This document shows positions 8,544 through 24,922 of a DNA stretch of 37,427 nucleotides, piece by piece. The notes under the pieces were generated by a model. The model saw only the letters and a list, made by a program, of their open reading frames with translations, was not told the origin of the DNA and did not search any database. Every line of letters begins with the position of its first letter. The first letter of the stretch is position 1. Both the position numbers and the translations under genes were made by a program. Source of the stretch: a virus; IMG/VR virus record IMGVR_UViG_3300033145_000996, positions 1 to 37,427 of that record. The stretch is one strand, 5' to 3'.

Positions 8544-10757
8544 TTATAATCCTGTGCCCAATTTATCTGAAGTATATTGCAAACAAACTCCGTGCAATTC
8601 CGCTGTATCCGTTAAGTCGTCATCGCCGTCAACGCCCAGTCTTTTTACTCTGCAATGCATACAGACATCGGTTGCACTCGGCAAATCAATTCCTGTAATC
8701 TCCGCTACAACCAAACCATTGGCCTGTGCCACCGCATTTGAATTAACCGTCAAGGTTTCCTGCGCCGCAGCAGTTGTATCTTCTCCGGCGGAAGTCCATA
8801 AATACTCTAATTGCCACACTGCTGTTTCTGTAGTAACTGGTGTATTTGTGCTCCATCCTATCAACAGCGAAGGGGCTACGCCCCTGTCCATATCAGGCGG
8901 AGTCCGTAGATTAAATACTATGGTATCATCAGTCCCATCTGAAAACTCCCATGCTCCGCTTATGCCCCATTCCTTAAAGGCCGCCGGTTTTGTTCCGGGC
9001 GCTTTTAATGCGTTAAAGGAAATCCATATACCCCTTAATACTCTTGCCGTGCCGTTTAAAGTCAATTCGCCGTCGTCGGCGAAGCTGGTGTAATTTGCAG
9101 CACCGCCGATATTCGCATCTGCGAAAGTCCCCGTGCCGAGAGTAGTGATATTACCGGATTGCATATCGAAGTTACCAGTATCATCAACATCAAGCTGCAA
9201 CTCATCCCCATCAACGCTGTGCTTGGAGTAGATTTTCAAATAGCCGGCAACGCCGTCATTCTCTTTGCCGTAGAAAATCTTTAGCGGATAACTTCTTTCC
9301 TTCGTTGCTATATTTGCAGCGTATCTTGGGCCAAGCTCTGCGATGTTCCCAGTTGTTATCCTCATCATTGGAACGCTTGCACCAACATCAGCACTTTGAA
9401 GACTAATTTCTTTATTGTTAGCCCACATAGTTTTTTTTGCCAAAAAGAATAGCTCCCCATAATCTCCACCAGGAGTCCACGAACCCCTAAACTGTAGAAA
9501 CTGGTCTATATCATTATCATATCTAATCCCAACAATTTCAGGTCTGCCGGAACCGTGTTCTAATTTAATCCCCAAGCCTTTTAACTCTCTGTCGAGAAGT
9601 GTCAAGTCTTCGTTCTTAACCGTAAATGGAGTGCTCGTAGCATCGCCGGTTTCTTCAATAGCAAGTCGCTTGACAGTCCCTATACCGCTAAATGTGCCAT
9701 CAACACCATTAACATCGTCTCCAACATCAAGCCCGCCAGTCATAACAACATCGCCGTCTGTCTTCAATAGAATCTGGTCGGCATTTGCGCCTGTGTATAT
9801 TTCCAACTCTCTTACAGTCCCCGTGCCAGCTGCGGTTGACCCTATAAGATACTGTTCTGCATCCTCGCTCCAACTCAGGGAAAGCCGTTCGGTATTTACT
9901 TGTGACGCAACCGTTCCCTTTCCAAATATCTGAAAGCCAACGCTGTCTCCTCCATCGCCCCTTTTAGTAAACAAATCGACATATAAAGCCTTGTCCAGTG
10001 TCTGCCCCTCGATATACAGCGAAGTCTTTCCCAGGCCGCCGAATTTAACATCGGATTCTGTAGGGCTGGTAAAAAGCAAACTATCAGATAATATGGCATT
10101 TTCCTGGTTTATCGTTACCGCCCCTGAAATATCACCGCTTGCAATTACAACAGTTCCGTCCGTTAAAGTCCTTGCCGTTATCTGGTGTGTAAATCTTACA
10201 TTTGCATCAGGAAATAAAAAGTCATCCTCCGATTGGTCGTATTCTATTGAGCCTGTATTGACCGAACCCAGAAAGGAGAATACCGTATCATCAGCAGAGC
10301 CGGTGCTACCGCCGGTAAATAAATGCCCCTGCATAGTTATATCATCGGTCGAGGTTAATTGCTCCGCCTGAACTATCTCACCAGCAGTTAAATTCAAGGC
10401 AGTCAATATGTCATTGCCGTCATCGAAGTAGAAGTTCGTATTGTCTTCGGTGAACCCGCCGTTGGCATCTATGAAAACAACCGAGCCTTCAGTTAAATCA
10501 GATATCATATAAGGGGTAATAAGAACATCATTTACATCGTCCCAATACATTTTATCGGCAGTATCAAATGATATATCGCCGGTCTTGAAATATAAAATGC
10601 CTTCACTCCAACTCCAGTAAGTGTCTTCGTTATCTCGATAAATCTGCGCCTTCTTCGTGCCGTCAGGTGAAAAGAGTTCTATCCTGCCATCGGATATTTC
10701 GACATTGGCAGCAGCCGTTGACGTTAAGAACAGAATGAGAAAAATCTTTTTAAGCAT
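8544..10757 (-). CDS. Tail fibre / appendage-like protein with signal peptide
   Basis: The chosen start at 10757 (737 residues) has GGGAGGAG only 4 bases upstream, embedded in the last glycine codons of the previous gene. The N-terminus MLKKIFLILFLTSTAAAN reads as a Sec signal with a cleavage region near AAA-N. The rest is low-complexity, Asp/Gly/Thr-rich and beta-like, with repeated forms such as FYFDDGND and MYWDDVND. This is typical of phage fibres. The C-terminal 150 residues look like a separate beta-sandwich. It sits between the gp14- and gp15-like ejection genes, an unusual place for a fibre gene. Confidence 0.6.
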   Translation of the reverse strand: MLKKIFLILFLTSTAAANVEISDGRIELFSPDGTKKAQIYRDNEDTYWSWSEGILYFKTGDISFDTADKMYWDDVNDVLITPYMISDLTEGSVVFIDANGGFTEDNTNFYFDDGNDILTALNLTAGEIVQAEQLTSTDDITMQGHLFTGGSTGSADDTVFSFLGSVNTGSIEYDQSEDDFLFPDANVRFTHQITARTLTDGTVVIASGDISGAVTINQENAILSDSLLFTSPTESDVKFGGLGKTSLYIEGQTLDKALYVDLFTKRGDGGDSVGFQIFGKGTVASQVNTERLSLSWSEDAEQYLIGSTAAGTGTVRELEIYTGANADQILLKTDGDVVMTGGLDVGDDVNGVDGTFSGIGTVKRLAIEETGDATSTPFTVKNEDLTLLDRELKGLGIKLEHGSGRPEIVGIRYDNDIDQFLQFRGSWTPGGDYGELFFLAKKTMWANNKEISLQSADVGASVPMMRITTGNIAELGPRYAANIATKERSYPLKIFYGKENDGVAGYLKIYSKHSVDGDELQLDVDDTGNFDMQSGNITTLGTGTFADANIGGAANYTSFADDGELTLNGTARVLRGIWISFNALKAPGTKPAAFKEWGISGAWEFSDGTDDTIVFNLRTPPDMDRGVAPSLLIGWSTNTPVTTETAVWQLEYLWTSAGEDTTAAAQETLTVNSNAVAQANGLVVAEITGIDLPSATDVCMHCRVKRLGVDGDDDLTDTAELHGVCLQYTSDKLGTGL

Positions 10758-11340
10758 AAGCTCCTCCCATACCACCCATACCAGCCCACGTCCCTTGTGT
10801 AACCCTTACGTTCCTGCCCTGTAGAGAACCAACCGCCCCTCCTCTGCCTAACGGCACATTTGTCTTTCCATTAAACATCCCGCTTTCAGCACCCATATAA
10901 GCGATAGAACCAAATCCCATAATACCCGTAGCCCACGCAGAACGCTTCGCCTGCTTTTTAGCGGCCTTACCAGTAGCAATCTCCAGAGCAGCACTTGATT
11001 CATAATATCTTTTTCCTTCTCGGCCCCGTTCCAGAATATATCCTATGTCTTGTGCAATAAGAGCTTCTGTTTCAGCTTCAATAACCAAAGGTGAGCCTAC
11101 ATTGATTCTAATACCGGCGGCAGCAGCTACGCCTTTCTGTCTTTCTATAAGCCTGCGGCCACGCTCTTTTGTTATCCCCGCCTGCGCAATAGCGGCCTTT
11201 TCTGCCATTTCAGCATTTTGCCTATCAATGGCCGCTCTGGATTCAGCAATTTTCTGAGCCTGCTCACCCTGCTGGCGGGTGGCCTGTATCTGCATTACCG
11301 TGCCAGCCCCCATCGCAGCTATAGCTAATGTTTCAAGCAT
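10750..11340 (-). CDS. Internal virion protein (gp14-like)
   Basis: This 196-residue protein starts in a TAATG overlap. It has a short hydrophobic N-terminus (LAIAAMGAGTVMQI), then an Ala/Gln/Arg/Glu-rich coiled coil (about 20-75), then AAAAGIRINVGSPLVIEAETEA. That last phrase resembles a conserved segment (Gly-Ser-Pro before a helix) of many podovirus internal core proteins. The C-terminus is Gly/Met-rich. In T7 the equivalent is ejected first and forms a pore in the outer membrane. Its neighbours are the gp13-like and glycine-rich genes. Confidence 0.65.
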   Translation of the reverse strand: MLETLAIAAMGAGTVMQIQATRQQGEQAQKIAESRAAIDRQNAEMAEKAAIAQAGITKERGRRLIERQKGVAAAAGIRINVGSPLVIEAETEALIAQDIGYILERGREGKRYYESSAALEIATGKAAKKQAKRSAWATGIMGFGSIAYMGAESGMFNGKTNVPLGRGGAVGSLQGRNVRVTQGTWAGMGGMGGAYA

Positions 11341-11780
11341 TATCCTAATACTCCGGCAGAACCAAAACCCTCGCCTATCAATGAAGGCTTACCTAATTTC
11401 GGCTCACCCCAACCTTTAGTTAAAAGTGAAGCCATACGCTGCCTGTTTCGCCTTTCCCGTTCGGACAGTTGGGTTATCGGAGTAGCGGTTTTTTTAGGAA
11501 CCCCAGCTCTGACCGCAGGCGTTCCTTTCTGCAATGGCTGGCCTCCAGCACCAAACGAAGATGCTGTAATTCCCCCCATCGCCCCGCCAATAGCAGCACC
11601 TTGACCGGCAGTAAGTCCACCAGCACCTCCAGCGGCTGCACCACCGATTGCCCCGCCGATACCACCGCCAGCAGCACCCCACATAGCGCCTGCGCCCACA
11701 TCGCCGCCGGTAAGTGCGGCTACCCCAGCACCCGTCCCAGCCCCTATGGCTGCACCGATTAAAATTGCTTCAATACCCAT
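11340..11780 (-). CDS. Glycine-zipper virion protein
   Basis: The first half of this 146-residue protein is a run of Gly/Ala-rich hydrophobic segments (GAAIGAGTGAG, GGGIGGAIGGAAAGG). The second half is basic and ends RMASLLTKGWGEPKLGKPSLIG. Proteins with this plan (glycine zipper plus a short tail pairing Trp/Pro with LGKP) commonly sit beside internal virion genes in podoviruses. The start overlaps the upstream stop as TAATG. It may insert into membranes during ejection. The exact role is unknown. Confidence 0.55.
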   Translation of the reverse strand: MGIEAILIGAAIGAGTGAGVAALTGGDVGAGAMWGAAGGGIGGAIGGAAAGGAGGLTAGQGAAIGGAMGGITASSFGAGGQPLQKGTPAVRAGVPKKTATPITQLSERERRNRQRMASLLTKGWGEPKLGKPSLIGEGFGSAGVLG

Positions 11781-12208
11781 TATAAAACCTCATACATATT
11801 GTTTATTACACCGGAGAACAACTGGCTTTGCTTCACGCCCCTAAAGATAGCGCCTAAAAAATCACCGTATCGTTTGCCATTATCCAAATCCGATGGTATG
11901 GCAAACATTACCTTCTCCGAATGGCTTTCCTTCCATTTATAAAGCTCTTTACGAAATACTACCGCCGCCCTCGCCCTCTCTAAACGAGATGCTATACTTG
12001 AATAAATCGCCCATATTTCCCAGACGTTACCTTTTTTTACCACACCACAGCAGGCAACAACCTTTTCGCTTTTCACGTAACTTACAGCTTGCCCGACGGC
12101 GACCATTTTCTTTGCGTCCTCGAAACTAATACCCCGCCATATATCTCTGACCTCAACGAGATTGTCCTTAATCGCCATTATATCTTCAGGTTGTAACTGT
12201 CGAATCAT
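11780..12208 (-). CDS. GNAT-like virion-associated protein (T7 gp13-like)
   Basis: The 142-residue protein opens MIRQLQPEDIMAIKDNLVEVR and has a central strand pattern, AVSYVKSEKVVACCGVVKKGNVWEIWAIY. Together these look like a GNAT acetyltransferase fold lacking a clear acetyl-CoA loop. T7 gp13 and related proteins between nozzle and core genes have this appearance. Its ATG overlaps the nozzle gene stop by ATGA. Catalytic activity is doubtful and an assembly role is likelier. Confidence 0.5.
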   Translation of the reverse strand: MIRQLQPEDIMAIKDNLVEVRDIWRGISFEDAKKMVAVGQAVSYVKSEKVVACCGVVKKGNVWEIWAIYSSIASRLERARAAVVFRKELYKWKESHSEKVMFAIPSDLDNGKRYGDFLGAIFRGVKQSQLFSGVINNMYEVL

Positions 12209-14508
12209 CTTATTTCCATATCCAGCACAATCGCACGAATACCAAAAGGCGCAGGGTCTCCACTTTCGAAGTAGATTGTCTGCTTCGTCATTCCCGAATA
12301 GATAAACGGAAACTGTAATAGTTTTACTTCGGACGTAAATAAGTCCTGCTTCGCTGTCAGGGTTGCACCTTGATAAAATTGTATATCAGATAAAACACTA
12401 TCAGCACCATTACCGAAAGAGCATTGACCAGTCTTGTAAAAATCGACATACAACCGTTTGATTTTCTTGTTCATCGCCATATCCTGCGGATGCGCCCTTA
12501 TCGGCAGGGTCTCTAATTTAGCGGTATAAGGCAAGCCGACAATAACTCTCGCCGAAGAAACGCCAATCGTTACCGCCCCGTCACTAACCGTTTCTTTCGG
12601 CAAGACCATTCCATCAGCCCAGATACTAATTGATTCAGCCTCTAAATGGTCTAACCCGCTAAAAGAGGCTGTTGCCGTCGAATCATAACCCAAGCCGGAA
12701 TCCACAAACCAGCAATCATCCTGGTCGTCACCCCAATCGAATGGCTGAAACTGCTCGATATATCTATAATCCGTCCCGTCAATAGTTCTTTTAACCGATA
12801 CCCAAACCTCATCCTCATCTTCACCGGAGGATATAACCGCAACACTCTCAAAGTCACCATCCGTTATCTGCTTCGTCCAGGCAATTACCGACTGGTCTTT
12901 CAGATAAGTCAAAGTAGCTATGTCACCGTTATTTAATACGCACCAGAGAATAGGGTTCGGTCTCAACTGGAAGGCAATATCTTTAATCCCCGAGTCAGTA
13001 ATCTCCGGCGATAGCAAGGTCAGGTCGGGCGAGATATATTTGTCCCGTTCCAGATTATAGTCGAACTCTCTTACTTTCCTCGCTCCCCTTTCGATATAAA
13101 GCATTGCTTCACCCGCCCGAACCACACCCAGTTGGGCCGAGCCGTATCTTGTCTGCTCCTGATAATTAGGTGAGGTCGGCGTAATTGCTTTACCGTCATC
13201 GCCGTATTTACCACAAGAGCCGGAAGTGCCTATGAATAAATAATTACTGCCCAATAACCATCTGATAGGGTTCTGCCCTGGCAGGGCAATCGTAAATGCA
13301 GAGGTATCTAAAGTCCCTTCCAGAAAATCAGTATAATCATCGGGATTGGCCTGGCCGAACCAGATAGTTTGCGGATATGTCTCCGAACCGCCGTATGTAA
13401 GTCTCTGCTGATGAACGGTCACTGCTTCCGGCCAGCCCCTATAATCAGACCAGTAACCCTCTCTCCAGGTAGAGGTCGCAGCAGTATCAACTAAAGCTGT
13501 AAGAACAGTCGCCGTCGCCGATACACCGGAGGTAATAGCAGTTATTTCAACAACACCCTTGTTCGTATTGTCGGTGATAGTGAATACATAATCAGGTGTG
13601 CCACTACCGAAGTCACTGCATACTACTCGATAAACAGCGCCGTCCTCTTCATATTCAGTTGGATTGTCGAAATCAGTATCAGTTAATGCTGTCAGTGCAG
13701 GTCTCCACGAGATACCGTTGTTCGTGCTTCGCTGGAGTGTTATTGTGCTGTCTGCGTTATCTGTCGTGGTAAAGCCATAGTCGCCGGAAAAATGGGGTGT
13801 TGATATTGAGACCCCATTAGCCGTAAATGTGCCCGATATAGTTGAAGTGCCTCGAACCTGGTCTATCCTCCAAATCGAACCAATATGACTTGCACCTATA
13901 TCCGGCTCAAATATATCAAAACTTGCAGTTAGTGTAATTGAATCACCAACATTTACATCTCCTACTGGCGTTATTGTCGTAGTAGTATCGTTCTCCGGCA
14001 GGAACGGGCCGGTTTCAAAATCAACATCCTCGATTGTCCAGTTGTCGTGGGCCGACCGAGAAAGAACCTGCGGCGGGTCACTGCCATTGGTAAGATACAT
14101 CTCATTATCAACTTGAACGTAGCGAACGTCCCATATTTCATCCGAATCGTAATCCGTTGATATTTCATAGGGGTCGTCACCAGCAAGTATCTGCCCGTCA
14201 TTGCGGTAGAATCGTAAATACTCATCGCCAAATTCGAGAATATAAGCATCATCAGTAGAATACTCGAATGGTATGAGCCGCACACTGCCTGCCGCAGAAG
14301 CAATGTATTTCGTGCCTGGCCTTTTGAGGGCCGGCCCCTGAACAGTAACGAACATATTCTCAAGCGTTCTGCACGATGATGTGTATTTCTCATAATCCGC
14401 CCGTGCCTCAATTAACGGTGATACTTGGCCAGTATTAAAATTGGTCATAGACGGCATATAGCCGAAAGACGCCGAGCACAAGACTAAAACTAAAGCCAGT
14501 CTTTTCAT
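12205..14508 (-). CDS. Tail tubular protein B / nozzle (T7 gp12-like) with signal peptide
   Basis: The 767-residue protein begins MKRLALVLVLCSASFG, which reads as a signal peptide. The next part, TNFNTGQVSPLIEARADYEKYTSSC, then NMFVTVQGPALKRPGTKYI, is the typical N-terminus of T7 gp12-type nozzle proteins: a 'tGevsP' turn, 'leNm' and 'G...rRPGT'. The start at 14508 follows the upstream stop by one base (TGA-t-ATG); there is no clear ribosome-binding site, so coupling is likely. The frame opens earlier (14592), but that start lies inside the upstream gene. A nozzle normally joins the adaptor in the cytoplasm, so a Sec signal here is odd. Confidence 0.75.
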   Translation of the reverse strand: MKRLALVLVLCSASFGYMPSMTNFNTGQVSPLIEARADYEKYTSSCRTLENMFVTVQGPALKRPGTKYIASAAGSVRLIPFEYSTDDAYILEFGDEYLRFYRNDGQILAGDDPYEISTDYDSDEIWDVRYVQVDNEMYLTNGSDPPQVLSRSAHDNWTIEDVDFETGPFLPENDTTTTITPVGDVNVGDSITLTASFDIFEPDIGASHIGSIWRIDQVRGTSTISGTFTANGVSISTPHFSGDYGFTTTDNADSTITLQRSTNNGISWRPALTALTDTDFDNPTEYEEDGAVYRVVCSDFGSGTPDYVFTITDNTNKGVVEITAITSGVSATATVLTALVDTAATSTWREGYWSDYRGWPEAVTVHQQRLTYGGSETYPQTIWFGQANPDDYTDFLEGTLDTSAFTIALPGQNPIRWLLGSNYLFIGTSGSCGKYGDDGKAITPTSPNYQEQTRYGSAQLGVVRAGEAMLYIERGARKVREFDYNLERDKYISPDLTLLSPEITDSGIKDIAFQLRPNPILWCVLNNGDIATLTYLKDQSVIAWTKQITDGDFESVAVISSGEDEDEVWVSVKRTIDGTDYRYIEQFQPFDWGDDQDDCWFVDSGLGYDSTATASFSGLDHLEAESISIWADGMVLPKETVSDGAVTIGVSSARVIVGLPYTAKLETLPIRAHPQDMAMNKKIKRLYVDFYKTGQCSFGNGADSVLSDIQFYQGATLTAKQDLFTSEVKLLQFPFIYSGMTKQTIYFESGDPAPFGIRAIVLDMEIR

Positions 14509-14509
14509 A

Positions 14510-14959
14510 TCAGTAAAGATAACCAAATACATCAATAGTAGCAGTAACGGCACTTGCATCGCTGGATACGTCCGTTTGAATACCAAAGGCATCGCCTGCG
14601 GCGAATACAGCCTCTACTCGTGTATCATCTGCGGTCACGCAATAGAAGTCATCAGTCGCATCTACGGTTGATAGATTGACCGTATCGTTCCAGCCTGCGG
14701 CCGCTGTCCCCGCCCCGAAATCATTGTCTGTTCCGCAGGCCACAGCACCACTTAAAGAATGAATAACCACTCTTGTTACGATGCAGGTTTTACCAGGGGG
14801 AACGGTATAAAGAGTAGCTTTCGTATTATTAGTTCCCATAGCAACGGAAGTTGTCGTGCTAAGAAGACCTTGAGAGGATTCTTCCAAATCTGCGCCCATT
14901 ACCAACACAGTAAGAAGCAGGCAGACTATTAGCCACGGTAGTGTTTTTTCCCTGAACAT
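14510..14959 (-). CDS. Small secreted-type beta-sandwich tail protein
   Basis: The 149-residue protein starts behind AAGGAG. Its hydrophobic N-terminus (about residues 7-22, ending VMGAD) reads as a signal peptide. The rest is Thr/Ser/Ala/Val-rich beta sequence containing VPPGKTCIVTRVVIHSLSG, a pattern seen in small jelly-roll proteins. It ends IDVFGYLY, close to the TVYGRLY ending of the 298-residue protein at 18594-19490. It lies between the tailspike and the nozzle genes, so a tail accessory subunit is likely. Confidence 0.5.
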   Translation of the reverse strand: MFREKTLPWLIVCLLLTVLVMGADLEESSQGLLSTTTSVAMGTNNTKATLYTVPPGKTCIVTRVVIHSLSGAVACGTDNDFGAGTAAAGWNDTVNLSTVDATDDFYCVTADDTRVEAVFAAGDAFGIQTDVSSDASAVTATIDVFGYLY

Positions 14960-14973
14960 TTTTTTCTCCTTAA

Positions 14974-17022
14974 TTAGTAACCATAAGTAACAACATCACC
15001 TTTATAAGTAACAACGTCACCTTTGTAAGTAACAACATTAGACGGCGTTAAAAAATGCCTTATATCTTCAGGCAGAATTACTATCTGGCTTATGTAAACA
15101 TCTTCTGAATCGTGACCTGAAGATTTAGTAACCTTAACCTCAATCGTATCGCCATCATCTGAATAATTATCCGTATCCCCGATAATAAATGGCATACCAC
15201 CGGCAGGATACGGGATGAACTGGTCGCCGCTATTGGAAATTACCTGGCCTGTAAGCTGGGTAGCTAAATGACCGTCATTGCTGTTATACACCCTCATCGC
15301 CACTGTGGCCGTCCCCGATTCGCTTTTCATATAAAAGTAAGCCCTGTAATTCCCAGGTGCAAGCATTGCAGGTGATTTTATGCCGCTTATCATAGCATAA
15401 TTGCCATTGGTTGTTATAGTAGCCCTGCGACCATAAAGACCTCTTGTATCCGCTACCCGCACGGCAGGGCTGACAGTCATATCCGGCGGAAGAATAGTCA
15501 TTGAATGTTGGCCGCCGGCAAGTAAATCACCTACCAATCCAGACGTCCACGATGTTGATATAATACCTTCAGGATTACCGCCAGGGGTATGAGGCGAGAC
15601 CAAAGTTCTGCTCGGGCTATAATTATAATATGTTTGCGTGCTGCGACCTGGTTGTATATCACAACCTAAAGATTCTCTTGCAATATAATAACCACCGGAA
15701 GTATTCCCCTCAAACCACGAACCTGTCAATACAGTATCTATTGCGACACCTAAATATAAACCATAGCCAGTATTACCTTGGAACGAACCGCCGATAATGA
15801 CATTACCATTACCATTGGCTATTCGCATTCCATCTTTGTCTGAACCATCCTGCGACCAGGAATTTACGTTGATGAAAGTATTGATATTGGGTTGATAGGT
15901 GCCGTCTGTGACTAAATATATTCCGTGGTCGTCACAATCTCTAACGTGAACATCTGCGACTCTGGAATAATATACATTGCCGTAAACCTGCAAACCATAA
16001 CTGCCGCAATCGGTTATCTTGACTCTCTTTATTAAATGATGCCAGCCGCTATTTGCGTTAATCCCAATACCGGAAGTTGCGTTACCTAAAATTGCCAAAT
16101 CTCTTACTGCGTTGTAACAATTGTTTCCTTCACCAGTAGAGTTGATAGTAATAGTAGGATTGCCGCTACCAGTATTGTCGTCGATAATAGTTAAATTCAT
16201 ATTCTCGCCTACAAGCTCTACTTCGTGTGCTTCAATAGTAAGAACGTCCGCGATAAGAGTGTAAACTCCGGCAGAAAGATTTACCTTCCCTCCACCGGTA
16301 GCTTCGGCAGCATCAATAGCCGCCTGTATATACTCAGAATCGTCAAGACCATCATCTGGTATCGCACCATAGGCATCTACATAGTAAGTCAGCCCAAGCG
16401 TCTGCTTCGCAGCACCGGAAGTTGTATCATCAAGAACCGTTTCCATAAAAGAACTAACCTCTACATCATCGGGCGTTACCCCTGATACATACGTCAATGT
16501 GCCGTCGTCGCCGAAATAAGGATACGTCTCCGCCCTTAAAGCAAGCCCTGGCAATTCCATATCGAAGGATGCCGAATCAGTTTCCTGCAATCGCACCGTC
16601 CTGTTGAGCCTGTCCTCTAAATCCTGAACCTGACGGGTTAGTTTGTCCAAAGACGCCTCTACTGTAACTACTGTTGTCGCACCAGAGATAGTCTCCTGAC
16701 TCTTTTTTATCGACCGGACAATAACAATCCTGTAAGTGGATGCGTAAGTATCTGTTGTAGTTACTACACCGCCATTAAGATAATCACTGCTGGTTGCTTC
16801 AATTGTATAGTCTGTATCTACAGTCAAAAGACTTTCCACACCAGTAGCAATAATGTGAGTATAAACCAATACATCATCGGCGGAATTACAGGCGAAAGTA
16901 AACGTGAACGCAGTAACCGAACCGTTGCAGCTAAAATACTGCCTGACAGTCTCATCTTCGGAAACCGTCCCGAAAGCCGGAATTGCAAATAATAGAAATA
17001 ATACCATTATTAGTCTTTTCAT
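14974..17022 (-). CDS. Tailspike: T7-fibre N-domain plus pectate-lyase-like beta-helix, with signal peptide
   Basis: The 682-residue protein starts behind AAGGAG. MKRLIMVLFLLFAIPAFG reads as a signal peptide. Residues about 28-160 match the T7 tail-fibre attachment domain pattern (YFSCNGSVTAFTFTF, then VLVYTH, then LDKLTRQVQDLEDRLNRTV, a coiled coil). From about 210, VDAYGAIPDDGLDDSEYIQAA is the pectate-lyase-superfamily entry motif (GA-x-x-DG-x-x-D-x-x-x-I), followed by beta-helix coils rich in Asn/Gly. A C-terminal carbohydrate-binding-like domain and short repeats end the chain. It likely binds and cuts a surface polysaccharide. Confidence 0.75.
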   Translation of the reverse strand: MKRLIMVLFLLFAIPAFGTVSEDETVRQYFSCNGSVTAFTFTFACNSADDVLVYTHIIATGVESLLTVDTDYTIEATSSDYLNGGVVTTTDTYASTYRIVIVRSIKKSQETISGATTVVTVEASLDKLTRQVQDLEDRLNRTVRLQETDSASFDMELPGLALRAETYPYFGDDGTLTYVSGVTPDDVEVSSFMETVLDDTTSGAAKQTLGLTYYVDAYGAIPDDGLDDSEYIQAAIDAAEATGGGKVNLSAGVYTLIADVLTIEAHEVELVGENMNLTIIDDNTGSGNPTITINSTGEGNNCYNAVRDLAILGNATSGIGINANSGWHHLIKRVKITDCGSYGLQVYGNVYYSRVADVHVRDCDDHGIYLVTDGTYQPNINTFINVNSWSQDGSDKDGMRIANGNGNVIIGGSFQGNTGYGLYLGVAIDTVLTGSWFEGNTSGGYYIARESLGCDIQPGRSTQTYYNYSPSRTLVSPHTPGGNPEGIISTSWTSGLVGDLLAGGQHSMTILPPDMTVSPAVRVADTRGLYGRRATITTNGNYAMISGIKSPAMLAPGNYRAYFYMKSESGTATVAMRVYNSNDGHLATQLTGQVISNSGDQFIPYPAGGMPFIIGDTDNYSDDGDTIEVKVTKSSGHDSEDVYISQIVILPEDIRHFLTPSNVVTYKGDVVTYKGDVVTYGY
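14983..15036. repeat. 21-bp tandem repeat at the tailspike C-terminus
   Basis: About 2.6 copies of a 21-base unit encode VVTYKGD, VVTYKGD, VVTYGY just before the stop. The copies are nearly identical at DNA level and keep frame, so copy number could change without breaking the gene. Confidence 0.8.
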
Positions 17023-17036
17023 TTTCTTTTAACTCC

Positions 17037-17792
17037 TTATGAAGCATCCTCGACTAAATAATTCATATCCACCTGCTTTATACCCGTGCCTCTCAAAGTC
17101 TTGTTCCGCCCGCCGGACAAGTCCTGAACCGTTCTGGCTGTATCATTGAAGCCTGTTTGATTAAACGCCTGAGCGTCCGGTATGCTCTTTAAGTAATACT
17201 CCTGCATCATCGCCGCCCGTGCTTCCATATCACGGCCAACTACCGGACAGAGTTCCGCAGCTAATAAAGTGGCAATGCACTCAATCATCTGCTCGGAAAA
17301 TGCACCTACAGTAGTGATGTCAATGGCATATTCAATAAAGGCGCTGTCAGTGTCGTAATTACTCAATGTATCAGTCAGGAGAATCTTGCCGTTGCCTTTG
17401 GCATTAGCTATCATTTCCCACTGATAATTGACGTTCGTTCTTGTCTGATAATTAGTCGGGTGCTTTCTTGTGCTTATGGAATTTTCATTGAATTGCCGGA
17501 TAACAACAAGACAATTACTCGGTAGGTTAAAGGCGTATTGCCACTGGCCTATTTCCGGTGCATCGCTTATTTCAGCACCTAAATCTTTGAACCGCACAGT
17601 TTCCCGAAACGGGCATTCTCTTATAGCAAGGTCGATAATAGACCTTCTTCTCACTCTCGGAAGACTGAATTTGCAGAACGTCGATACATTGTCCGTGCCG
17701 TCTATACTCGATATGAAAGCATTGCCCTGAAGCTGGTCGCCAGCACCGCCAATTTTGCCGAGCGAAATATTGCATAAATCAGTTTCGGTCAT
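17037..17792 (-). CDS. Tail tubular protein A / adaptor (T7 gp11-like)
   Basis: I chose the ATG at 17792 (251 residues, MTETDLCNISLGKIGGAG), with AAGGAA about 8 bases upstream, because T7 gp11-type adaptors begin with T-x-x-D-x-x-N-x-A/S-L-x-x-I-G. Later features also fit: a WQYAFNLPSNCLVVI strand, then AFIEYAIDITTVGAFSEQMIECIATLLAAELCP, the helical segment typical of gp11. The adaptor joins portal and nozzle. It lacks a signal peptide, unlike its presumed partner at 12205-14508. It overlaps the end of the 86-residue gene upstream. Confidence 0.75.
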   Translation of the reverse strand: MTETDLCNISLGKIGGAGDQLQGNAFISSIDGTDNVSTFCKFSLPRVRRRSIIDLAIRECPFRETVRFKDLGAEISDAPEIGQWQYAFNLPSNCLVVIRQFNENSISTRKHPTNYQTRTNVNYQWEMIANAKGNGKILLTDTLSNYDTDSAFIEYAIDITTVGAFSEQMIECIATLLAAELCPVVGRDMEARAAMMQEYYLKSIPDAQAFNQTGFNDTARTVQDLSGGRNKTLRGTGIKQVDMNYLVEDAS

Positions 17793-18039
17793 TACTTTTT
17801 TCCTTAATATCATCTAAGTAATCGTGTATTAACTGCCAATGAGTAGCGTGCAGCATCTCTGTCGCTTCTATAAGGTCAAATCCTTTGTCTTGCCTGCCTT
17901 TTTTGCCGAAATTTGTTTTTACGAAAACATTGTCCTTATTAATGCGCTTTTTACATTCACGTATCACGATAATTTCTTTATGCCTACTGGCAAGTTCAGT
18001 AATTAAATCACCAGTTGAAACCAAATTTAAATCATCCAT
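17779..18039 (-). CDS. Small hypothetical phage protein
   Basis: An 86-residue protein starts at 18039 (MDDLNLVSTGDLITELASRH). The GGAAGGAG site lies 6 bases upstream; an in-frame ATG at 18045 is too close to it. It is mixed alpha/beta, with central IIVIRECKKR and a helical C-terminus. Small proteins opening with 'st-dL-x-eL-x-sR' occur next to adaptor genes in podoviruses, but I know no function. It overlaps the adaptor gene by 14 bases. Confidence 0.6.
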   Translation of the reverse strand: MDDLNLVSTGDLITELASRHKEIIVIRECKKRINKDNVFVKTNFGKKGRQDKGFDLIEATEMLHATHWQLIHDYLDDIKEKSNDRN

Positions 18040-18152: not shown

Positions 18153-18271
18153 TATTTTCCTTTCGAATGTTTCTTTGCTAAGTATGCTCTGTAAGCACGT
18201 TCAGCACTGGCCTTGTTCTTAAACGTCTTACTTCCCATTTTCCATTTTCCGCCAACTTTTCTTACCGGCAC
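18152..18271 (-). CDS. Tiny basic phage protein, GTG start
   Basis: A 39-residue frame begins with GTG at 18271-18269, about 9 bases behind AAAGGA, and reads MPVRKVGGKWKMGSKTFKNK ... HSKGK. This resembles the family of about 40-residue phage proteins of form MPV-K-x-x-GG-x-x-x-GS-x-x-x-x-x-x-K-x-x-A. It overlaps the HNH gene end by 10 bases and the next start as TAATG. Function unknown. Confidence 0.6.
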   Translation of the reverse strand: MPVRKVGGKWKMGSKTFKNKASAERAYRAYLAKKHSKGK

Positions 18272-18594
18272 AATTTATTGTCCTTTCTAATACTAAGCTC
18301 TCTTACATACCAGCAGACTATCTCAATGGCTTCGTTATAAGTAAAATACGAATTCAAATGCCCAATGTGAAAATGACAGTCTTTGCACATAACAATCAGA
18401 TTAGAATGGTCAAGTGCCAAGTCCGGCCTTATGTGCCGAGGAAGTATGTGATGAACCTGTATCTTCTTCTTATACCCGCAGCAGGCGCAAATCCGGCCGT
18501 GCTTTTTCAAGAAAAGCCTGCGGCATCTCTGCCAAGCCCAGTTCCAGCTGGCCCCGTCGGGTGCTGTCAAATTTAACAAATGTCTTTCAAACAT
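18262..18594 (-). CDS. HNH endonuclease
   Basis: The 110-residue protein has C36-x2-C39, H48-H49 (QVHHILPRH), Asn65 (DHSNLIVMC) and C70-x2-C73 followed by HxxxGH. This is the zinc-braced HNH nuclease pattern. It overlaps the upstream structural gene as TGATG. Free-standing HNH genes inside late operons are often selfish homing-type elements, while HNH proteins beside terminase can aid packaging. Here it is 13 kb from terminase among tail genes, so a mobile role is likelier. Confidence 0.8.
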   Translation of the reverse strand: MFERHLLNLTAPDGASWNWAWQRCRRLFLKKHGRICACCGYKKKIQVHHILPRHIRPDLALDHSNLIVMCKDCHFHIGHLNSYFTYNEAIEIVCWYVRELSIRKDNKLCR

Positions 18595-19490
18595 CAGTAT
18601 AATCTGCCATAAACCGTTACATCGCCTGCTTCACCTGTTTGTGCTGGAGTTGCATCGTAAACAACAAACTGCACCCATTCCAAACCGGTCATATCCACTA
18701 CGATAAAGGCCATTTCGTTATCGCCGGAATTGTAAACGGCTACCGAAGGCCATTTGGTAGTCTCATCGAGATTGATAGTATCCGCCCAAAAAACAGGATT
18801 AGCCTGCACAGTAGAGTCTGTGTTATTGTCTGTTGACGCCATACCACTGCAAACGATATTATTAGCGTCCGTTGCAGTCGTTATCGCATAGTAACCATTC
18901 GTAATATCCGTGCCAGTTACATAAATCATCATACCGGCAACAGTGCCATCGAAACCTTCGTTAGTAACTGTAAAAGTTTCACTACTGTGTGTATATGTCA
19001 CACCCGTCTCATCAACCAATGCACCTACCGCATCAGCACTATCATCGGGATATGTAATAACCGCCTGTGTCCCAAGGATACCATCTCCCTCTGCTATGAC
19101 CTGAAGCATACCATTGATTCTACTCCAGCCAACAATATTGAAACTGAATGTATTATCTATGGTATTATCATCGCCAACATCGTAATTCTTGCCGCAGATA
19201 GCAAAGACCCACGCACCACCAGATGACTGATACTCCGTGCCGTCACCACTGCCCTGATAAGAGCGTATATGGTAAGGCCCGCCGTTGGCCACAGTAGATG
19301 AGTCCTTATTGGCGAAATTGCCCTGAATAGGCAAATTATAGACCTCCAGAAAGTCGCCGCCATCCTCATCCGCCGTTTCACGAATCAGTTTCCATCCTGA
19401 ATGGTAAGTATCCAGAGGTATAGCCGGTAGAATAGTGCACAAAAGCAGAAGCAGTATGAGAATGTGCCATTTTCTTAACATCTTTTTCAT
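18594..19490 (-). CDS. Secreted-type tail/appendage protein
   Basis: The 298-residue protein starts behind AAGGAG. MKKMLRKWHILILLLLLCTI is a strongly signal-like N-terminus (cleavage near AIPLD uncertain). The body is beta-rich with Thr, Asp and Gly, and one internal stretch (about 145-225, TYTHSSETFTVTNEGF ... YVTGTDITNGYYAI) looks like a receptor-binding or coat-type beta domain. The ending DVTVYGRLY mirrors that of the protein at 14510-14959. No enzyme motif is visible. Confidence 0.5.
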   Translation of the reverse strand: MKKMLRKWHILILLLLLCTILPAIPLDTYHSGWKLIRETADEDGGDFLEVYNLPIQGNFANKDSSTVANGGPYHIRSYQGSGDGTEYQSSGGAWVFAICGKNYDVGDDNTIDNTFSFNIVGWSRINGMLQVIAEGDGILGTQAVITYPDDSADAVGALVDETGVTYTHSSETFTVTNEGFDGTVAGMMIYVTGTDITNGYYAITTATDANNIVCSGMASTDNNTDSTVQANPVFWADTINLDETTKWPSVAVYNSGDNEMAFIVVDMTGLEWVQFVVYDATPAQTGEAGDVTVYGRLY

Positions 19491-19502
19491 TTTTATTTCT
19501 CC

Positions 19503-21836
19503 TTAAAAAGCATGTCTTGTTCTGTAAGTAATACGATACTCTATATAACGACTTCTTATGCCCGTAATAATATCCGTTGTCGCACTTGCTGAACTTGACG
19601 CTGTGCCGGTATTCGGAATGGTATCTCTCGCCTGAACGGTATATGTATATTGTGTTCTTGATGCTAAACCAGTATCAATATAGATTGGGCTTGATTGCCA
19701 CCCGCTATTTGAAGCGCCTTGATTATCGGTTGTTTCGGTAAAATTATATTCAACCGTAGTGCCACCATCAGCCGCCGTTGTCGCCGTCATAATTATTGAC
19801 GAGGTGTTCAATGCTGTCGGGGCAACAGAAAAAGTAGCAGGGTCTGGTTCTGGTGCAGCCGTGTCTGCAACGACTACACTATTGGAATCTGACCATACCC
19901 CTGTCTCCGGTGGATCGGAAGCATCCCTTAATTGCAGTCGATAAGTATATGTAACGCCTCCATCAAGGTTGGCATCAGTGTAGCTTGTGCTTAATTGCCA
20001 GTCGGAATCGTCACTGCCAGGATTACCGGTTGTTTCGTCAAAATAATACATAATTGGGGCATTGGCGTCAGTTCCTTCAGTTGCTACCATAGTAATTGCG
20101 TTTTCACCATCAGCAGCAGGGTCAGTAGCCCAGGTCGCTGGATTTGGTGTTGGCGGGCCTGCTTCAACGTAACCTTCAATATTTTCGTAAGCACCGGCAT
20201 CAGGGCTTGCGTCACGGGAAACACCGAGGATGTCCGTAGAAGGAGAGTTTTCGGGGTCGCCGTGCCCAACTCCTAAACTACTTGCTGATGCGTGGGTAAA
20301 ATCGTTGGCGTCAAAATCGGAGAATAACTCTCTGAACGTAGCGTTGTCCCAAGCGCCATCGAGGAAATCCGAAGTACCATCATATACCCAAGACTGCATA
20401 CCTGTATCTTGCCGATTAACGATATTGTAAGACTCCTCCGTTATATGTGTGTATGAATCGGAACCGGCATATCCTAACTGCAAATAACTTATGATGTTGT
20501 TCTTGATAGTAATGTCTGTATTTGAAGGTTCTGTGCATCGAAGCCTGCCGCTAACAATATTATTCCTGAATACCGCACCATCGGTCGAACCTATAAGAAC
20601 AGTCCCAAGATACTCATCGTCACCGTCAGAATACTGTCGATAAAATATGTTGTTTTCGACCGTCAAATTATCAGAGCCCGTTCCTGTGTCATTCAGCCAC
20701 ATAATCTGTGTATCTGAATTGTAAAACAAGTTGCCACTGATAGTCACTCCTGTATTTTGTACGGTTGAAGCGTTGAACTGAATGTGGTCGGTATGGACAC
20801 CCCCTTGAAAGTAATAAACAACATTGCTCGGCGTACCACCCGAAGCCACAGTCTTGCTCAAAGTTATTTTTGTATCACTTACCACTGTTACATAGACATT
20901 ATTATCACCGGTAATAACGTTATTGCCGGACACAATGAAAATTTCAGTTGACGTAGCCAGCGTATCGCCAGCCGTATTCCACTCGGCCGCACCGTTGTTC
21001 ATTTCAAGACCGTCCGCCTCAAATATGGTGTCCGTAGGAGTTTCGGACAACGTGGCAACCCAATAATTAAGGTCGTAAAACTCACACCCGCTAATGAGAA
21101 GATTGTTCGCATCAATGACAATTATACCATCGCTTGCCAAGTTGTGTATTTTGCTATCTTCAATACTGATATTGGTATTATCAGACGTATCACTTAACTG
21201 GATACCAATATGACAATCTGTTATATTGCAATCGCTGATTGAAATATCGTTGGCTTTCAAATGAATACCCCACGAAAACCCGCCAAGACGATGAGCAACG
21301 GGGGCGCGAACCGTACATTCTTTAACATCGACATCGGACGCACCATTGTAAAACCAGAATCCCTTAGCTTCATCATTTACAGTTGCAAGGGTATAGCCGT
21401 CACCGATGCAATCCAGACCTACAAAATTAACATCGCTGAAATTTTGGAGCCTAACGCAATACCCCTTTACGTGAGTTGGAGTAATAGTCAAATCTTCAAA
21501 TTGCAACTTAACTGATATACTGTCACCAACCAGATTTATGTAATCAAAATCAGGAACTTCGCTGTCAGCGGCTTTAATCGTCAACCATTCGTCGCGAGCT
21601 TTTACGAGAACGCCGCCGGAAAGGTTGTCATAATCGCCCGTGTAAACTAACACGGTATCGCCCGCTCCATCATCGCCAAGAGCATCAAGGAGGGTGTCCA
21701 TTGCGCCCCAGGTTTTCTTCGCCGCTCCAACAGATAAACCATCCCCCGAATCATTAGGCCGGCCAGCATCAAGATAATAAGTCGTTGCACTTGCCTGATA
21801 AGCAAATAGCAATATCAGGAATAGAATGCGCTTCAT
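19503..21836 (-). CDS. Secreted-type beta-helix protein with two Fn3-like domains
   Basis: The 777-residue protein starts 6 bases behind GGGAG. MKRILFLILLFAYQASA reads as a signal peptide with an ASA cleavage site. Then TTYYLDAGRPNDSGDGLS begins a parallel beta-helix (to about 500) of the polysaccharide-lyase or chondroitinase-B-like type, rich in N-N-x-I-x-x coils. Two Fn3-like beta domains follow (about 560-650 and 660-750: ATWATDP ... YTYRLQLRDAS; ATFSVAP ... YTYTVQARD). The tail ends in a basic RSRYIEYRITYRTRHAF. A surface glycan-binding or cutting appendage is likely. No catalytic residues can be assigned by eye. Confidence 0.6.
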   Translation of the reverse strand: MKRILFLILLFAYQASATTYYLDAGRPNDSGDGLSVGAAKKTWGAMDTLLDALGDDGAGDTVLVYTGDYDNLSGGVLVKARDEWLTIKAADSEVPDFDYINLVGDSISVKLQFEDLTITPTHVKGYCVRLQNFSDVNFVGLDCIGDGYTLATVNDEAKGFWFYNGASDVDVKECTVRAPVAHRLGGFSWGIHLKANDISISDCNITDCHIGIQLSDTSDNTNISIEDSKIHNLASDGIIVIDANNLLISGCEFYDLNYWVATLSETPTDTIFEADGLEMNNGAAEWNTAGDTLATSTEIFIVSGNNVITGDNNVYVTVVSDTKITLSKTVASGGTPSNVVYYFQGGVHTDHIQFNASTVQNTGVTISGNLFYNSDTQIMWLNDTGTGSDNLTVENNIFYRQYSDGDDEYLGTVLIGSTDGAVFRNNIVSGRLRCTEPSNTDITIKNNIISYLQLGYAGSDSYTHITEESYNIVNRQDTGMQSWVYDGTSDFLDGAWDNATFRELFSDFDANDFTHASASSLGVGHGDPENSPSTDILGVSRDASPDAGAYENIEGYVEAGPPTPNPATWATDPAADGENAITMVATEGTDANAPIMYYFDETTGNPGSDDSDWQLSTSYTDANLDGGVTYTYRLQLRDASDPPETGVWSDSNSVVVADTAAPEPDPATFSVAPTALNTSSIIMTATTAADGGTTVEYNFTETTDNQGASNSGWQSSPIYIDTGLASRTQYTYTVQARDTIPNTGTASSSASATTDIITGIRSRYIEYRITYRTRHAF

Positions 21837-21846
21837 AACATTCTCC

Positions 21847-22173
21847 CTAATTAACTAATTTTTTGGCTTCAGCAATAGCTTTGGCTTTGGCCTCGGCAGC
21901 AGCTTTGGCTTTTGCTTTAGCCTCTTTTGCAGTCTTCTGCTCGGCTTCAAATTCGGCGAGCAATGCTTTCGCATCGGCGATTTTTCTGGCTTCCACTTCT
22001 TCAATTTCCGCACGCACGGCTTTCGCTATGGCCTTGGCCTCAAGCCTGGCACGAGCCGCCTCTGCTCTCTCTGTAAGCGGGGCTATCACAATGTTAATCC
22101 CATTTATGCCATCCACCACGCCATCCAGAAACCTTTTCAGCGTTTCGGGATTTAAGTTTTCAATCTTTTTCAT
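21847..22173 (-). CDS. Ala/Lys/Glu-rich coiled-coil protein
   Basis: A 108-residue protein starts behind AAGGAA. After a short N-terminal domain (MKKIENLNPETLKRFLDGVVDG) it is almost one long helix of Ala, Lys, Glu and Arg (about 35-105), with AKAKAKAAAEAKAKA-type low-complexity repeats. It has no signal peptide although both neighbours do. It may be a trimeric spacer, a chaperone or a scaffold for the beta-helix proteins. Function unknown. Confidence 0.55.
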   Translation of the reverse strand: MKKIENLNPETLKRFLDGVVDGINGINIVIAPLTERAEAARARLEAKAIAKAVRAEIEEVEARKIADAKALLAEFEAEQKTAKEAKAKAKAAAEAKAKAIAEAKKLVN

Positions 22174-22231
22174 AATAGATTCCTTAAAATATAGGAGCGA
22201 GCGGTTAAACCCGCCCCCATTAAAGTTAAAC

Positions 22232-24922
22232 TTATGCTCCGCTTGTTACAACAGCAGTTGCAACCATTGGTTCGTAGCGGATGTAAAATACAACTTCATC
22301 ATCAGCATCACCATTTGCGCTGAGGTTCATCTCTATTACGCCCGCAGGTGCGATAAACTGCATATCTGGTGCGACAGCACCACCGGCTGTAACCGGAGTC
22401 ATTGCACCGCCAAACGTAGCATTGCAGTACCAAATCGTCCCAGCAGCGTCGGCAGTTGTATCAACCGCCGAAGTAATATCTACCTGTGAAGCACCAGGGC
22501 TTGTGGGAGTCATAGCGAATTTCATATTGATAGTAGCTGTCTTTATCGTGTTGGTAACTACACCAATCAATGAAAGAACCCTAACCGGCCCGTTGGCTAC
22601 GGTAAAGATGGTCGTATTGCCGGAAGCGGCAGACAAGTTTGTCTTGGTGAAAGTCGCAGAACGAGCTTGCTGCTGGAGTAAATCTTCCAAACGCTCAAGG
22701 TTAGAACCATCATCATCGGCAGTAATGTCCGAAGTATCAGCACTCAAAGGAATACGGATTGCCTGCTGGTCAAGAGCGTCAGTTCCCCAGTTGTTAAAAG
22801 CCTTTAGTGAACCTGGCTCATACATTGTGGAATAACTATCAGAATACAAATAGTTATTGGCCCACACACCAGTTGCAGCACCACTGCCATTGATACAATA
22901 CTTGGTAGTGAGCGTGTTGCTTAACGTGTTGTCCATAATGACCAGATTGAGCGGAACAGAAGTAGTCCAGTAGATGCAACCGAGCTGGGAATCGCCAAAG
23001 ACAGTATTACCAATTATCGTAGTATCCTGGATAGCCGTTTCTGAAAGGTCGATAAAACAATCGACATCGGCGGCCGTGGCAGAGGTATTGTAATATGTGC
23101 AATTCTTGACAGTTAGTTTGTCAGCCAAAGCGTCAACATCGATACATATTTCAAATTCCTCGTCACTGCCTTCAGCTACAACAAATGCACAATTCTCAAT
23201 CGTACAGCCGATACCGGCATCCTCTACCCGAAAAGCGTAGGTACATTTGTCAGCGCCCGCTTGTAATCGCAGGTTCTTAACCGCAATACCGGCATTGTCA
23301 AGGGTGATTTCGTCCGTAGCGTCATTCCAGGTCAGTAACGGTCGTGCATCGCCTTCGCCCATACCGATAAATGAAACATTGGCTATATTCAGAAGAAGGT
23401 CGCCTATCTCTTCATCGTGTCCGTCGGCAATAAAAACTACATCACCGGCAGAACAGGCAGCCTCAGCAAGAGCGACAGTAGCATAAGCATTTTCCATAGT
23501 CAGGCCAGAACCGTCGCCGGAAGTGCCACTGTCAACATAGCGAATCGTTCCTGCACAACCTAACATTGTAGGGTCGTTAAGATTCAATTCTTCAACTCTC
23601 CTAATGTAAATTTCATCACTGGCAGTTATCGCCTCTGAAGAGGAAACATTAAGAGTGAATGTTCCGGTTGCTGAATCATAATCGGTAATATCAATAGTTT
23701 CGCCTTCATAAGTACCGGCCGAAGAATTGTTGTAAAGCCAAACCAAAGACCAGCCGGTATTAAAGTAGTCATTGCCAAAACCAGATAAACCAAGACATAT
23801 TGCCTGTGTATCAGTACTGTTGGTCTGACATTCTCCCGTATAACCGGTATCGTCAAGAGCAGCTATCGAAGCCACTAAACTCGTTCCAGTATCGGTAAGA
23901 ATATCCCGAAGAAGGGTATCGTAGTTTATCGTCTCAGCATCTTCGGTCTGAATACAGATATTATCAGGTGAAACAAACATTGCATCGGCGACAATCGCAA
24001 AAGATGAGCCGTTGCCGTAGCATTTGTTGTTGATTATACTTCCAGTCGAAGCAGTCTCGAAGCCTATTGTCTTACCAGCACTGGTATCGTAATTGTGGAT
24101 TACGTTGTCATTAACTAACATCTCAGTTGAAGTCGCAGCAGTAGCCTTAATAACATAATCACTCCAGTCGCCATAGAAATGGTTGCCGGATATAACTGTC
24201 TCGTCGGAAGCACCTTCGATAACTATCGCAGAAGAACTTGTGCCGCCAGTTGCACCAATAAAACTGTTACCGACAATAGTCAGCCTATGAGCGGCAGTAG
24301 TAACATTGACCATTATCAAAAGCTCCTCGTTGCTGGAATTTTCCCTAAACTGACAACCGAGAATTCTTAAACCATCACCAGTTGCAGCTACGTCAAAACC
24401 ATAAGTCGAACCTGTAGCAAATTCACCCAGAAAGCGAATGTTGTAAACCGTTACATCAGGTGAACTTACTCCGACTTTAGATGCCTGCGCAGTTAGGGAA
24501 ATCTCCGGCATTTCATCGCCTGGACCGAATCCGATAATAGTCATACCTGGACAATCAAGGTCTAAAGCAGATGCGGTTGCAATATTTTCAGCGTGAGCCT
24601 GGGCGACAAAAACAAAGTCGCCAGCGTTATCCGTGCATAGGTCAATGCCTTCCTGCAAGGTATCTTTGGCAGTTGACCAACTTGTTCCCGCACCTTCTGA
24701 TGATACGGCGGAATCAACGTAATAAATTGTGCCAGTTCCTTTTCCAGTAATGCCTAATTCCGCTTCGACCTCAACCATAAACCGTCTGACAGGATCGTCG
24801 GTAGCATTAGTCCTGACAAATTGCAGGTTCTTCTTATAGTTATCAGCCCCGTAGGTAAGACCATAAGTTGCGTTCGCCATAAACAGGGTCAATAACAAAA
24901 CTAACAAAATCTTCTTTTTCAT
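22232..24922 (-). CDS. Secreted-type double beta-helix protein with C-terminal beta-sandwich
   Basis: The 896-residue protein starts behind AAGGATAT. MKKKILLVLLLTLFMANATYG reads as a signal peptide. Two homologous beta-helix modules follow. The first begins near residue 60 (GTIYYVDSAVSSEGAGTSW) and the second near 460 (GTIRYVDSGTSGDGSGLTM). Each goes on to a VFVAxxHxE or VFIADGHDEE phrase, then IGFGPGDEMPEI or IGMGEGDARPLL. The last 120 residues are a beta-sandwich (TTIFTVANGPVRVLSLIGVV ... DDEVVFYIRYEPM). It follows the cement gene, so a capsid or tail decoration is plausible. Confidence 0.6.
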   Translation of the reverse strand: MKKKILLVLLLTLFMANATYGLTYGADNYKKNLQFVRTNATDDPVRRFMVEVEAELGITGKGTGTIYYVDSAVSSEGAGTSWSTAKDTLQEGIDLCTDNAGDFVFVAQAHAENIATASALDLDCPGMTIIGFGPGDEMPEISLTAQASKVGVSSPDVTVYNIRFLGEFATGSTYGFDVAATGDGLRILGCQFRENSSNEELLIMVNVTTAAHRLTIVGNSFIGATGGTSSSAIVIEGASDETVISGNHFYGDWSDYVIKATAATSTEMLVNDNVIHNYDTSAGKTIGFETASTGSIINNKCYGNGSSFAIVADAMFVSPDNICIQTEDAETINYDTLLRDILTDTGTSLVASIAALDDTGYTGECQTNSTDTQAICLGLSGFGNDYFNTGWSLVWLYNNSSAGTYEGETIDITDYDSATGTFTLNVSSSEAITASDEIYIRRVEELNLNDPTMLGCAGTIRYVDSGTSGDGSGLTMENAYATVALAEAACSAGDVVFIADGHDEEIGDLLLNIANVSFIGMGEGDARPLLTWNDATDEITLDNAGIAVKNLRLQAGADKCTYAFRVEDAGIGCTIENCAFVVAEGSDEEFEICIDVDALADKLTVKNCTYYNTSATAADVDCFIDLSETAIQDTTIIGNTVFGDSQLGCIYWTTSVPLNLVIMDNTLSNTLTTKYCINGSGAATGVWANNYLYSDSYSTMYEPGSLKAFNNWGTDALDQQAIRIPLSADTSDITADDDGSNLERLEDLLQQQARSATFTKTNLSAASGNTTIFTVANGPVRVLSLIGVVTNTIKTATINMKFAMTPTSPGASQVDITSAVDTTADAAGTIWYCNATFGGAMTPVTAGGAVAPDMQFIAPAGVIEMNLSANGDADDEVVFYIRYEPMVATAVVTSGA

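What the first reader, a model, noticed from the sequence alone, without database searches (positions are those of the whole stretch)
8544..24922. Seven tail and appendage genes carry Sec-type signal peptides, including the nozzle
Seen: seven genes (8544-10757, 12205-14508, 14510-14959, 14974-17022, 18594-19490, 19503-21836, 22232-24922) each begin with 1-4 basic residues, a 10-15 residue Leu/Ile/Val core and a small-residue cleavage region (AFG, ASA, TYG, AAA). Six start directly behind a good ribosome-binding site, so the extension is genuine. The adaptor, ejection proteins, portal, cement and capsid lack it. Known: podovirus nozzles and fibres are normally cytoplasmic and assemble onto filled heads. 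Inference: this phage may export its whole distal tail module through Sec and store or assemble it in the periplasm until lysis, or keep hydrophobic N-termini for membrane use at entry. I know of no described phage that does this for a nozzle plus fibres.
Basis: partly seen in the sequence, partly recalled or inferred. Interest (0 to 1): 0.85.

Follow-up and report, generated by a model that had tools for sequence, protein, structure and literature searches.

The report
Podovirus tail proteins with export signals
A group of uncultured short-tailed viruses of bacteria puts export signals on the outer half of its tail, including the nozzle, but never on the head, so the two halves of one virus particle seem to be made on opposite sides of the host's inner membrane.

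Summary
All seven genes begin with Sec/SPase-I-type signal peptides; six have a good ribosome-binding site, and the nozzle start abuts the upstream stop. In 86 loci of the same nozzle family only 8 of 916 genes score so. The signals sit before the ancestral N-termini: the nozzle matches phrog_376 from residue 19, and the 14974 fibre resumes BPP-1 Bbp9 homology right after AFG|. The pattern is conserved: 19 viral contigs carry signal-bearing nozzles, against 121 signal-less family rows. In signal-nozzle phages, terminase, portal, scaffold, capsid, cement, adaptor and internal proteins carry 0 of 131 signals; nozzle and appendages carry 56 of 70 by blind start choice. Signal sequences diverge to about 31% identity yet all persist, and cleavage sites beat every shuffle. 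Two divergent phages split the nozzle into separate polypeptides, each with its own signal. Relatives next to this clade carry signals on appendages but not on the nozzle. Best reading: nozzle plus appendages are exported and cleaved, and meet the cytoplasmic head-portal-adaptor complex at or after inner-membrane breach. Export is strongly inferred; where and when assembly happens is not shown. Host unknown, with weak Planctomycetota hints. I found no precedent in tailed phages.

The parts
12205..14508 (-). Tail nozzle (gp12-like) with N-terminal signal MKRLALVLVLCSASFG|YMPS (signal at 14461-14508)
   Evidence: phrog_376 residues 19-766 E 9e-177; PDB 8ck1 Tail Nozzle; signal
14974..17022 (-). 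Tail fibre/spike with Bbp9-like N-terminal domain and beta-helix; signal MKRLIMVLFLLFAIPAFG| (16969-17022)
   Evidence: phrog_7458 and Pfam Beta_helix; homology to BPP-1 Bbp9 begins right after the signal; RBS aaggag
22232..24922 (-). Large appendage behind the cement gene; signal MKKKILLVLLLTLFMANA|TYG (24869-24922)
   Evidence: Family of 17 genes in relatives, 16 called with signal and the 17th (L101) visibly so
19503..21836 (-). Beta-helix appendage; signal MKRILFLILLFAYQASA| (21786-21836)
   Evidence: Pfam Beta_helix E 2e-11; strong cleavage score
18594..19490 (-). Appendage; signal MKKMLRKWHILILLLLLCTILPA (19416-19490; cut site weak)
   Evidence: Relatives L089, L159 (57-73% id) and more distant L115, L116, L122, L165, all with signals
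14510..14959 (-). Small (149 aa) protein; signal MFREKTLPWLIVCLLLTVLVMG|
   Evidence: RBS aaggag; no family and no relative found
8544..10757 (-). Appendage behind the nozzle block; signal MLKKIFLILFLTSTAA| (10710-10757)
   Evidence: Relatives L105 (7177), L108, L111 (9091), L115, L122 with signals; RBS ggagg
17037..17813 (-). Adaptor (tail tube A-like), no signal: last cytoplasmic part before the nozzle
   Evidence: phrog_394 E 7e-15; 0 of 19 orthologues with signal
24993..26663 (-). Cement (24993-25481) and capsid (25506-26663, real start about 26540), no signals
   Evidence: 0 of 11 and 0 of 18 orthologues with signal
29057..30883 (-). Portal, no signal
   Evidence: phrog_332 head-tail adaptor; 0 of 12
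2359..8498 (-). Ejection/internal proteins (2359-6876, 6873-8498), no signals
   Evidence: 0 of 9 and 0 of 14 orthologues with signal

Best explanation
A BPP-1/epsilon15/pelagiphage-type podovirus in which everything distal to the adaptor (nozzle, fibres, other appendages) is made as a precursor with a Sec/signal-peptidase-I signal, exported across the host inner membrane and cut, which restores N-termini like those of ordinary podovirus tails. Head, portal, adaptor and ejection proteins stay in the cytoplasm. The virion is thus made as two half-assemblies with the boundary at the adaptor-nozzle joint, which most likely meet when the phage breaches the inner membrane at lysis. Shown by sequence: signals, exact position, conservation, class partition. 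Strongly inferred (about 0.85): export and cleavage. Inferred only (about 0.5): folding or assembly outside the cytoplasm and joining at lysis. Likely history: appendages gained signals first, the nozzle later.
For: Signals precede the canonical nozzle and fibre N-termini; 19 signal-bearing nozzles against 121 rows without; 0/131 against 56/70 by gene class; cleavage score 7.5 against 5.2 shuffled, 0/300; kept at about 31% identity where unselected mutation leaves 17-26% readable; split nozzles in L089 and L150 with a signal on each polypeptide; no strong transmembrane stretch in mature chains; no conserved internal start and no second nozzle in the window; phages next to the clade with signals on appendages only.
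Against: No experiment. The scorer cannot by itself tell cleaved signals from anchors. A head without a nozzle should leak DNA in T7-like models, and no compensating plug was identified. Host unknown. Some cut sites are weak (18594, 14510). No clear lysis cassette was found in the window.
Confidence: 0.6

Rival explanations
1. Signal-anchor or entry-device reading: the hydrophobic N-termini are not cleaved. They tether the tail to the inner membrane during assembly (capsids dock on it from the cytoplasm) or stay in the virion and insert into membranes at infection.
For: Long hydrophobic cores; some weak cut sites; would explain why only distal tail parts have them.
Against: A/G/S at -1 in 67 of 93 and cleavage scores above all shuffles; the C-piece of split nozzles has its own signal although the N-piece already has one; the cut restores the ancestral N-terminus.
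Confidence: 0.2
2. The exported proteins act mainly in or outside the infected cell (glycan degradation, receptor masking, biofilm escape), and the virion gets its tail from a fraction that stays in the cytoplasm through inefficient targeting or alternative starts.
For: Beta-helix and LamG domains are typical of secreted enzymes and lectins.
Against: The nozzle has no such role and is the only nozzle found in the window; no conserved internal start; the signals are strong.
Confidence: 0.14
3. Artefact: start codons extended by chance, or signals dragged in with host-derived secreted domains and without function.
For: The window nozzle start has no Shine-Dalgarno sequence; the appendages look like secreted bacterial proteins.
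Against: Good RBSs on six of seven; signals kept in all relatives despite divergence; the signal is fused to a classical nozzle, not to a captured domain; 121 family rows without any extension.
Confidence: 0.04

Closest known systems
BPP-1 / epsilon15 / pelagiphage HTVC010P-type podoviruses
   Same: Gene order portal-scaffold-capsid-adaptor-nozzle-acetyltransferase-like-internal proteins, and the nozzle and fibre families
   Different: None of the nozzles or homologous fibres examined there has a signal
Filamentous phages (Ff: pIII, pVIII)
   Same: Virion proteins made with type I signal sequences and sent through SecYEG (PMC4823517)
   Different: There the mature proteins sit in the inner membrane and DNA is extruded through it; here the mature chains lack a membrane helix and the DNA head is an ordinary cytoplasmic capsid
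Sec- or SAR-type endolysins and spanin lipoproteins of tailed phages
   Same: Tailed-phage proteins sent through Sec in the infected cell (for example a Sec endolysin, PMC8951688)
   Different: Lysis proteins, not virion structural parts; single genes, not half of the tail

Membership tests
Podovirus tail nozzle (gp12-like, phrog_376) | Full-length profile match and position behind the adaptor | tested here: met
   E 9e-177 over residues 19-766; adaptor 17037 and nozzle in epsilon15/pelagiphage order, here with the fibre and 14510 inserted between
Podovirus tail nozzle (gp12-like, phrog_376) | No N-terminal export signal (as in all other members examined) | tested here: not met
   121 family rows without, window and 18 more contigs with a signal
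Sec/SPase I signal peptide | Positive n-region, hydrophobic h-region, small residues at -3/-1 | tested here: met
   weak at -1 for 18594
Sec/SPase I signal peptide | Positive call by SignalP 6 | not testable with these tools
   program not available
Sec/SPase I signal peptide | Export and cleavage in the cell | not testable with these tools
   needs fusions or proteomics
Lipoprotein (SPase II) signal | Lipobox with cysteine at +1 | tested here: not met
   none of the seven; only 33864 and 36825 in the window
Filamentous-phage-type exported virion protein | Mature protein held in the inner membrane by its own transmembrane helix | tested here: not met
   maximum 19-residue hydropathy of mature chains 1.2-1.6

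The most novel reading that the evidence does not exclude
A tailed dsDNA phage lineage assembles one virion from two half-particles made in different compartments: a cytoplasmic DNA-filled head ending at the adaptor, and a Sec-exported nozzle-and-fibre crown folded outside the cytoplasm. They join only when, or where, the inner membrane is opened. Export spread stepwise from fibres inward to the nozzle.
Probability: 0.5. Interest if true: 0.93.

Novelty: new variant of a known kind. Interest (0 to 1): 0.84.

Why it matters
Tailed-phage assembly is taken to be a cytoplasmic affair. A conserved, class-specific set of export signals on the distal tail would mean that virion assembly is divided by a membrane. 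It raises testable questions: how DNA is kept in a nozzle-less head, what drives joining, and why export pays (oxidising or chaperone-assisted folding, glycan-binding domains that fold outside the cytoplasm, or protection from premature tail activity). It also gives a genomic marker for such phages and a case where the compartment boundary appears to have moved inward during evolution.

Tried and rejected
Internal restart giving a signal-less nozzle: rejected, no conserved internal start with an RBS in 18 nozzles; the window's M18 and M21 are not conserved. Disulphide need as the driver: nozzle Cys content does not differ between signal and non-signal nozzles (p 0.29). Lower K+R in exported proteins: mostly a property of beta-rich tails, only a small difference within nozzles (0.068 against 0.0755). 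Host by prophage: two genome-contig scans (capsid, nozzle) found nothing. PVC-host test case: Lentisphaerae phage zth2-2 has the same fibre and nozzle families but no signals. AlphaFold models of the 18594 family and the nozzle were too poor to use (pLDDT 37 and 28), so no fold search was run. Literature searches for exported tail proteins in tailed phages found nothing relevant (open-access PMC only). A broad capsid alignment was too diverse to scan with.

Full report
OBSERVATION. Their N-termini are MLKKIFLILFLTSTAA|ANVE, MKRLALVLVLCSASFG|YMPS, MFREKTLPWLIVCLLLTVLVMG|ADL, MKRLIMVLFLLFAIPAFG|TVSE, MKKMLRKWHILILLLLLCTILPAIP|LDT, MKRILFLILLFAYQASA|TTYY and MKKKILLVLLLTLFMANA|TYGL. Six have Shine-Dalgarno-like sequences; the nozzle instead starts one base past the preceding stop. 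On an annotated E. coli segment it called 5 of 6 known exported proteins and no soluble cytoplasmic protein, but it also called several inner-membrane or membrane-associated proteins. It therefore does not by itself separate cleaved signals from anchors. Among 916 genes of 86 loci from the same nozzle family only 8 score positive, and four of those lie in L016 and L052, two close outgroup phages that show the same phenomenon. Seven of about 18 structural genes has a binomial chance of about 1e-10 (this treats genes as independent).

WHERE THE SIGNALS SIT. The nozzle matches phrog_376 from residue 19 to its end (E 9e-177) and a solved tail nozzle, 8ck1. Aligned with pelagiphage and epsilon15 nozzles, the stretch after the predicted cut (YMPSMTNFNTGQVSP) lines up with their N-termini (MARVAVELTNFTGGELSP), so the signal is an addition in front of a canonical nozzle. 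The 14974 fibre resumes homology with BPP-1 Bbp9 and other fibres (MSVQSTDRVAGPYPCNG..) immediately after AFG|TVSEDETVRQYFSCNG.

CONSERVATION. Capsid-based, nozzle-based and fibre-based scans brought in relatives. Nozzles with a signal occur in the window, L089, L098, L100, L107 (contig of L090), L115, L116, L117, L118, L122, L165, L169, L150, L159, L160, L161, L181, L177 and L202: 19 contigs counting the window. L107 lacks a clear ATG start, and L177 uses TTG behind a GGAGGT sequence. A tree of 138 nozzles puts 16 signal nozzles in one clade (support 95) with L177 apart. A second tree (70 rows, mixture model) puts L202, and also the signal-less L016, in an unresolved fork with that clade, L052 next outside it, and L121, L123 and L125 beyond. 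L016 and L052 carry signals on appendages but not on the nozzle; L121 and L125 each have a signal gene just upstream of the nozzle. This suggests that appendage export came first and nozzle export followed, though a loss in L016 is also possible.

PARTITION. In 26 loci of these phages, genes were labelled by homology and starts were chosen without regard to signals. Terminase, portal, scaffold, capsid, cement, adaptor, acetyltransferase-like and internal virion proteins carry 0 signals among 131 genes; nozzle and appendage families carry 56 of 70 (Fisher 7e-37; orthologues are not independent). Most of the 14 exceptions are visibly wrong starts or near-threshold signals. The boundary falls between adaptor and nozzle.

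SELECTION AND CLEAVAGE. Nozzle signals have a median pairwise identity of 31% (the following N-terminal stretch 43%; one of its 19 rows, L090, is a mislabelled appendage), yet all still read as signals. Simulated mutation without selection to 40% identity leaves only 17-26% readable. Over 93 signals the best cleavage score averages 7.5 against 5.2 for shuffled c-regions (0 of 300 shuffles as high), with A, G or S at -1 in 67. The mature chains have no strong transmembrane stretch. No conserved internal start could supply a signal-less nozzle, and tblastn finds a single nozzle in the window.

SPLIT NOZZLES. In L089 and in L150 (C-parts 38% identical to each other) the nozzle is broken at the same point. 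N-pieces cover window residues 1-102 and exist twice, one copy plain and one with a large insert between residues about 73 and 77. The C-piece covers about 100/105-766 and starts at SGQILD. Each of the six polypeptides carries its own signal. A merely tail-embedded hydrophobic N-terminus would not require this; export of every piece would. I regard this as the strongest single argument for functional export.

MECHANISM. Shown by sequence: signals, position, conservation, partition, cleavage-site enrichment. Strongly inferred: Sec export and SPase I processing. Inferred only: folding and partial assembly outside the cytoplasm, and joining to DNA-filled head-portal-adaptor complexes when the inner membrane is breached. 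The open problem is DNA retention without a nozzle; a plug by ejection proteins or late packaging is conceivable but untested. No clear lysis cassette was recognised in the window; the lipoprotein 36825-37274 has only a weak Rz-spanin-like hit.

HOST. Unknown. Two scans of GTDB genomes found no relative. Two phages of this group encode dockerin-like repeats (L101 gene 2827-3306, PF00404 E 0.002, below the curated cut-off; L202 gene 11805-13040, not matched by Pfam Dockerin). I associate such repeats with Planctomycetota/Phycisphaerae secreted proteins from my own knowledge; this is a weak hint. A PVC host is not sufficient: Lentisphaerae phage zth2-2 has no signals on its tail proteins.

KNOWN OR NEW. 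Filamentous phages export virion proteins through Sec (PMC4823517). In tailed phages, signals are known on lysis proteins (for example PMC8951688). Searches of open-access papers found no tailed phage with an exported nozzle or tail module. Subscription journals were not searchable.

VERDICT. Observation confirmed and extended from one genome to a phage lineage; the interpretation of export is strongly supported, periplasmic assembly plausible but unproven.

Noticed in passing
L089:15882-20889 and L150:8062-12213: Nozzle encoded as separate polypeptides: duplicated N-domains (one plain, one with a large insert, GLUG-containing in L089) plus a C-piece, so the nozzle may be a mixed-subunit ring.
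   Followed up: partly
L117:8249-12004, L169:9683-12622, L177:8957-11848: LamG-type lectin domains inserted inside the nozzle chain, suggesting that the nozzle itself binds glycans; L107, L160 and L165 nozzles are also enlarged.
   Followed up: partly
L107:5708-7009 and L104:1924-2286: N-termini with twin-arginine (Tat-like) motifs, MKTRRQLLKESLVALLF and MKRRNFLKLIGCLPFAG, in phage genes; one is an appendage in the tail module.
   Followed up: no
L101:2827-3306 and L202:11805-13040: Dockerin-like repeats in phage proteins (VDLTDLMILAERWL; VNFEDFAIFSDGW..INDLADFSDEWL), a weak hint of a Planctomycetota host.
   Followed up: partly
L120:2894-7194: Four signal-bearing genes (2894, 4343, 6203, 6544) before a signal-less nozzle in a distant nozzle lineage: possibly an independent case of exported appendages.
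   Followed up: no
L108:1503-1823 (-), L111:12285-12614, L181:5526-5846: Small family (GDVEITIVIPADKV..) with signals in three phages; a possibly related ORF in L105 (9770-10045) has none.
   Followed up: no
window 33864-34295 (+), 34961-35320 (-), 36825-37274 (-): Further export-type proteins outside the tail module: a lipoprotein-like protein with an HEIGH (HExxH) motif, a small Sec protein, and a lipoprotein with a weak Rz-spanin-like hit (phrog_739, E 0.035).
   Followed up: partly
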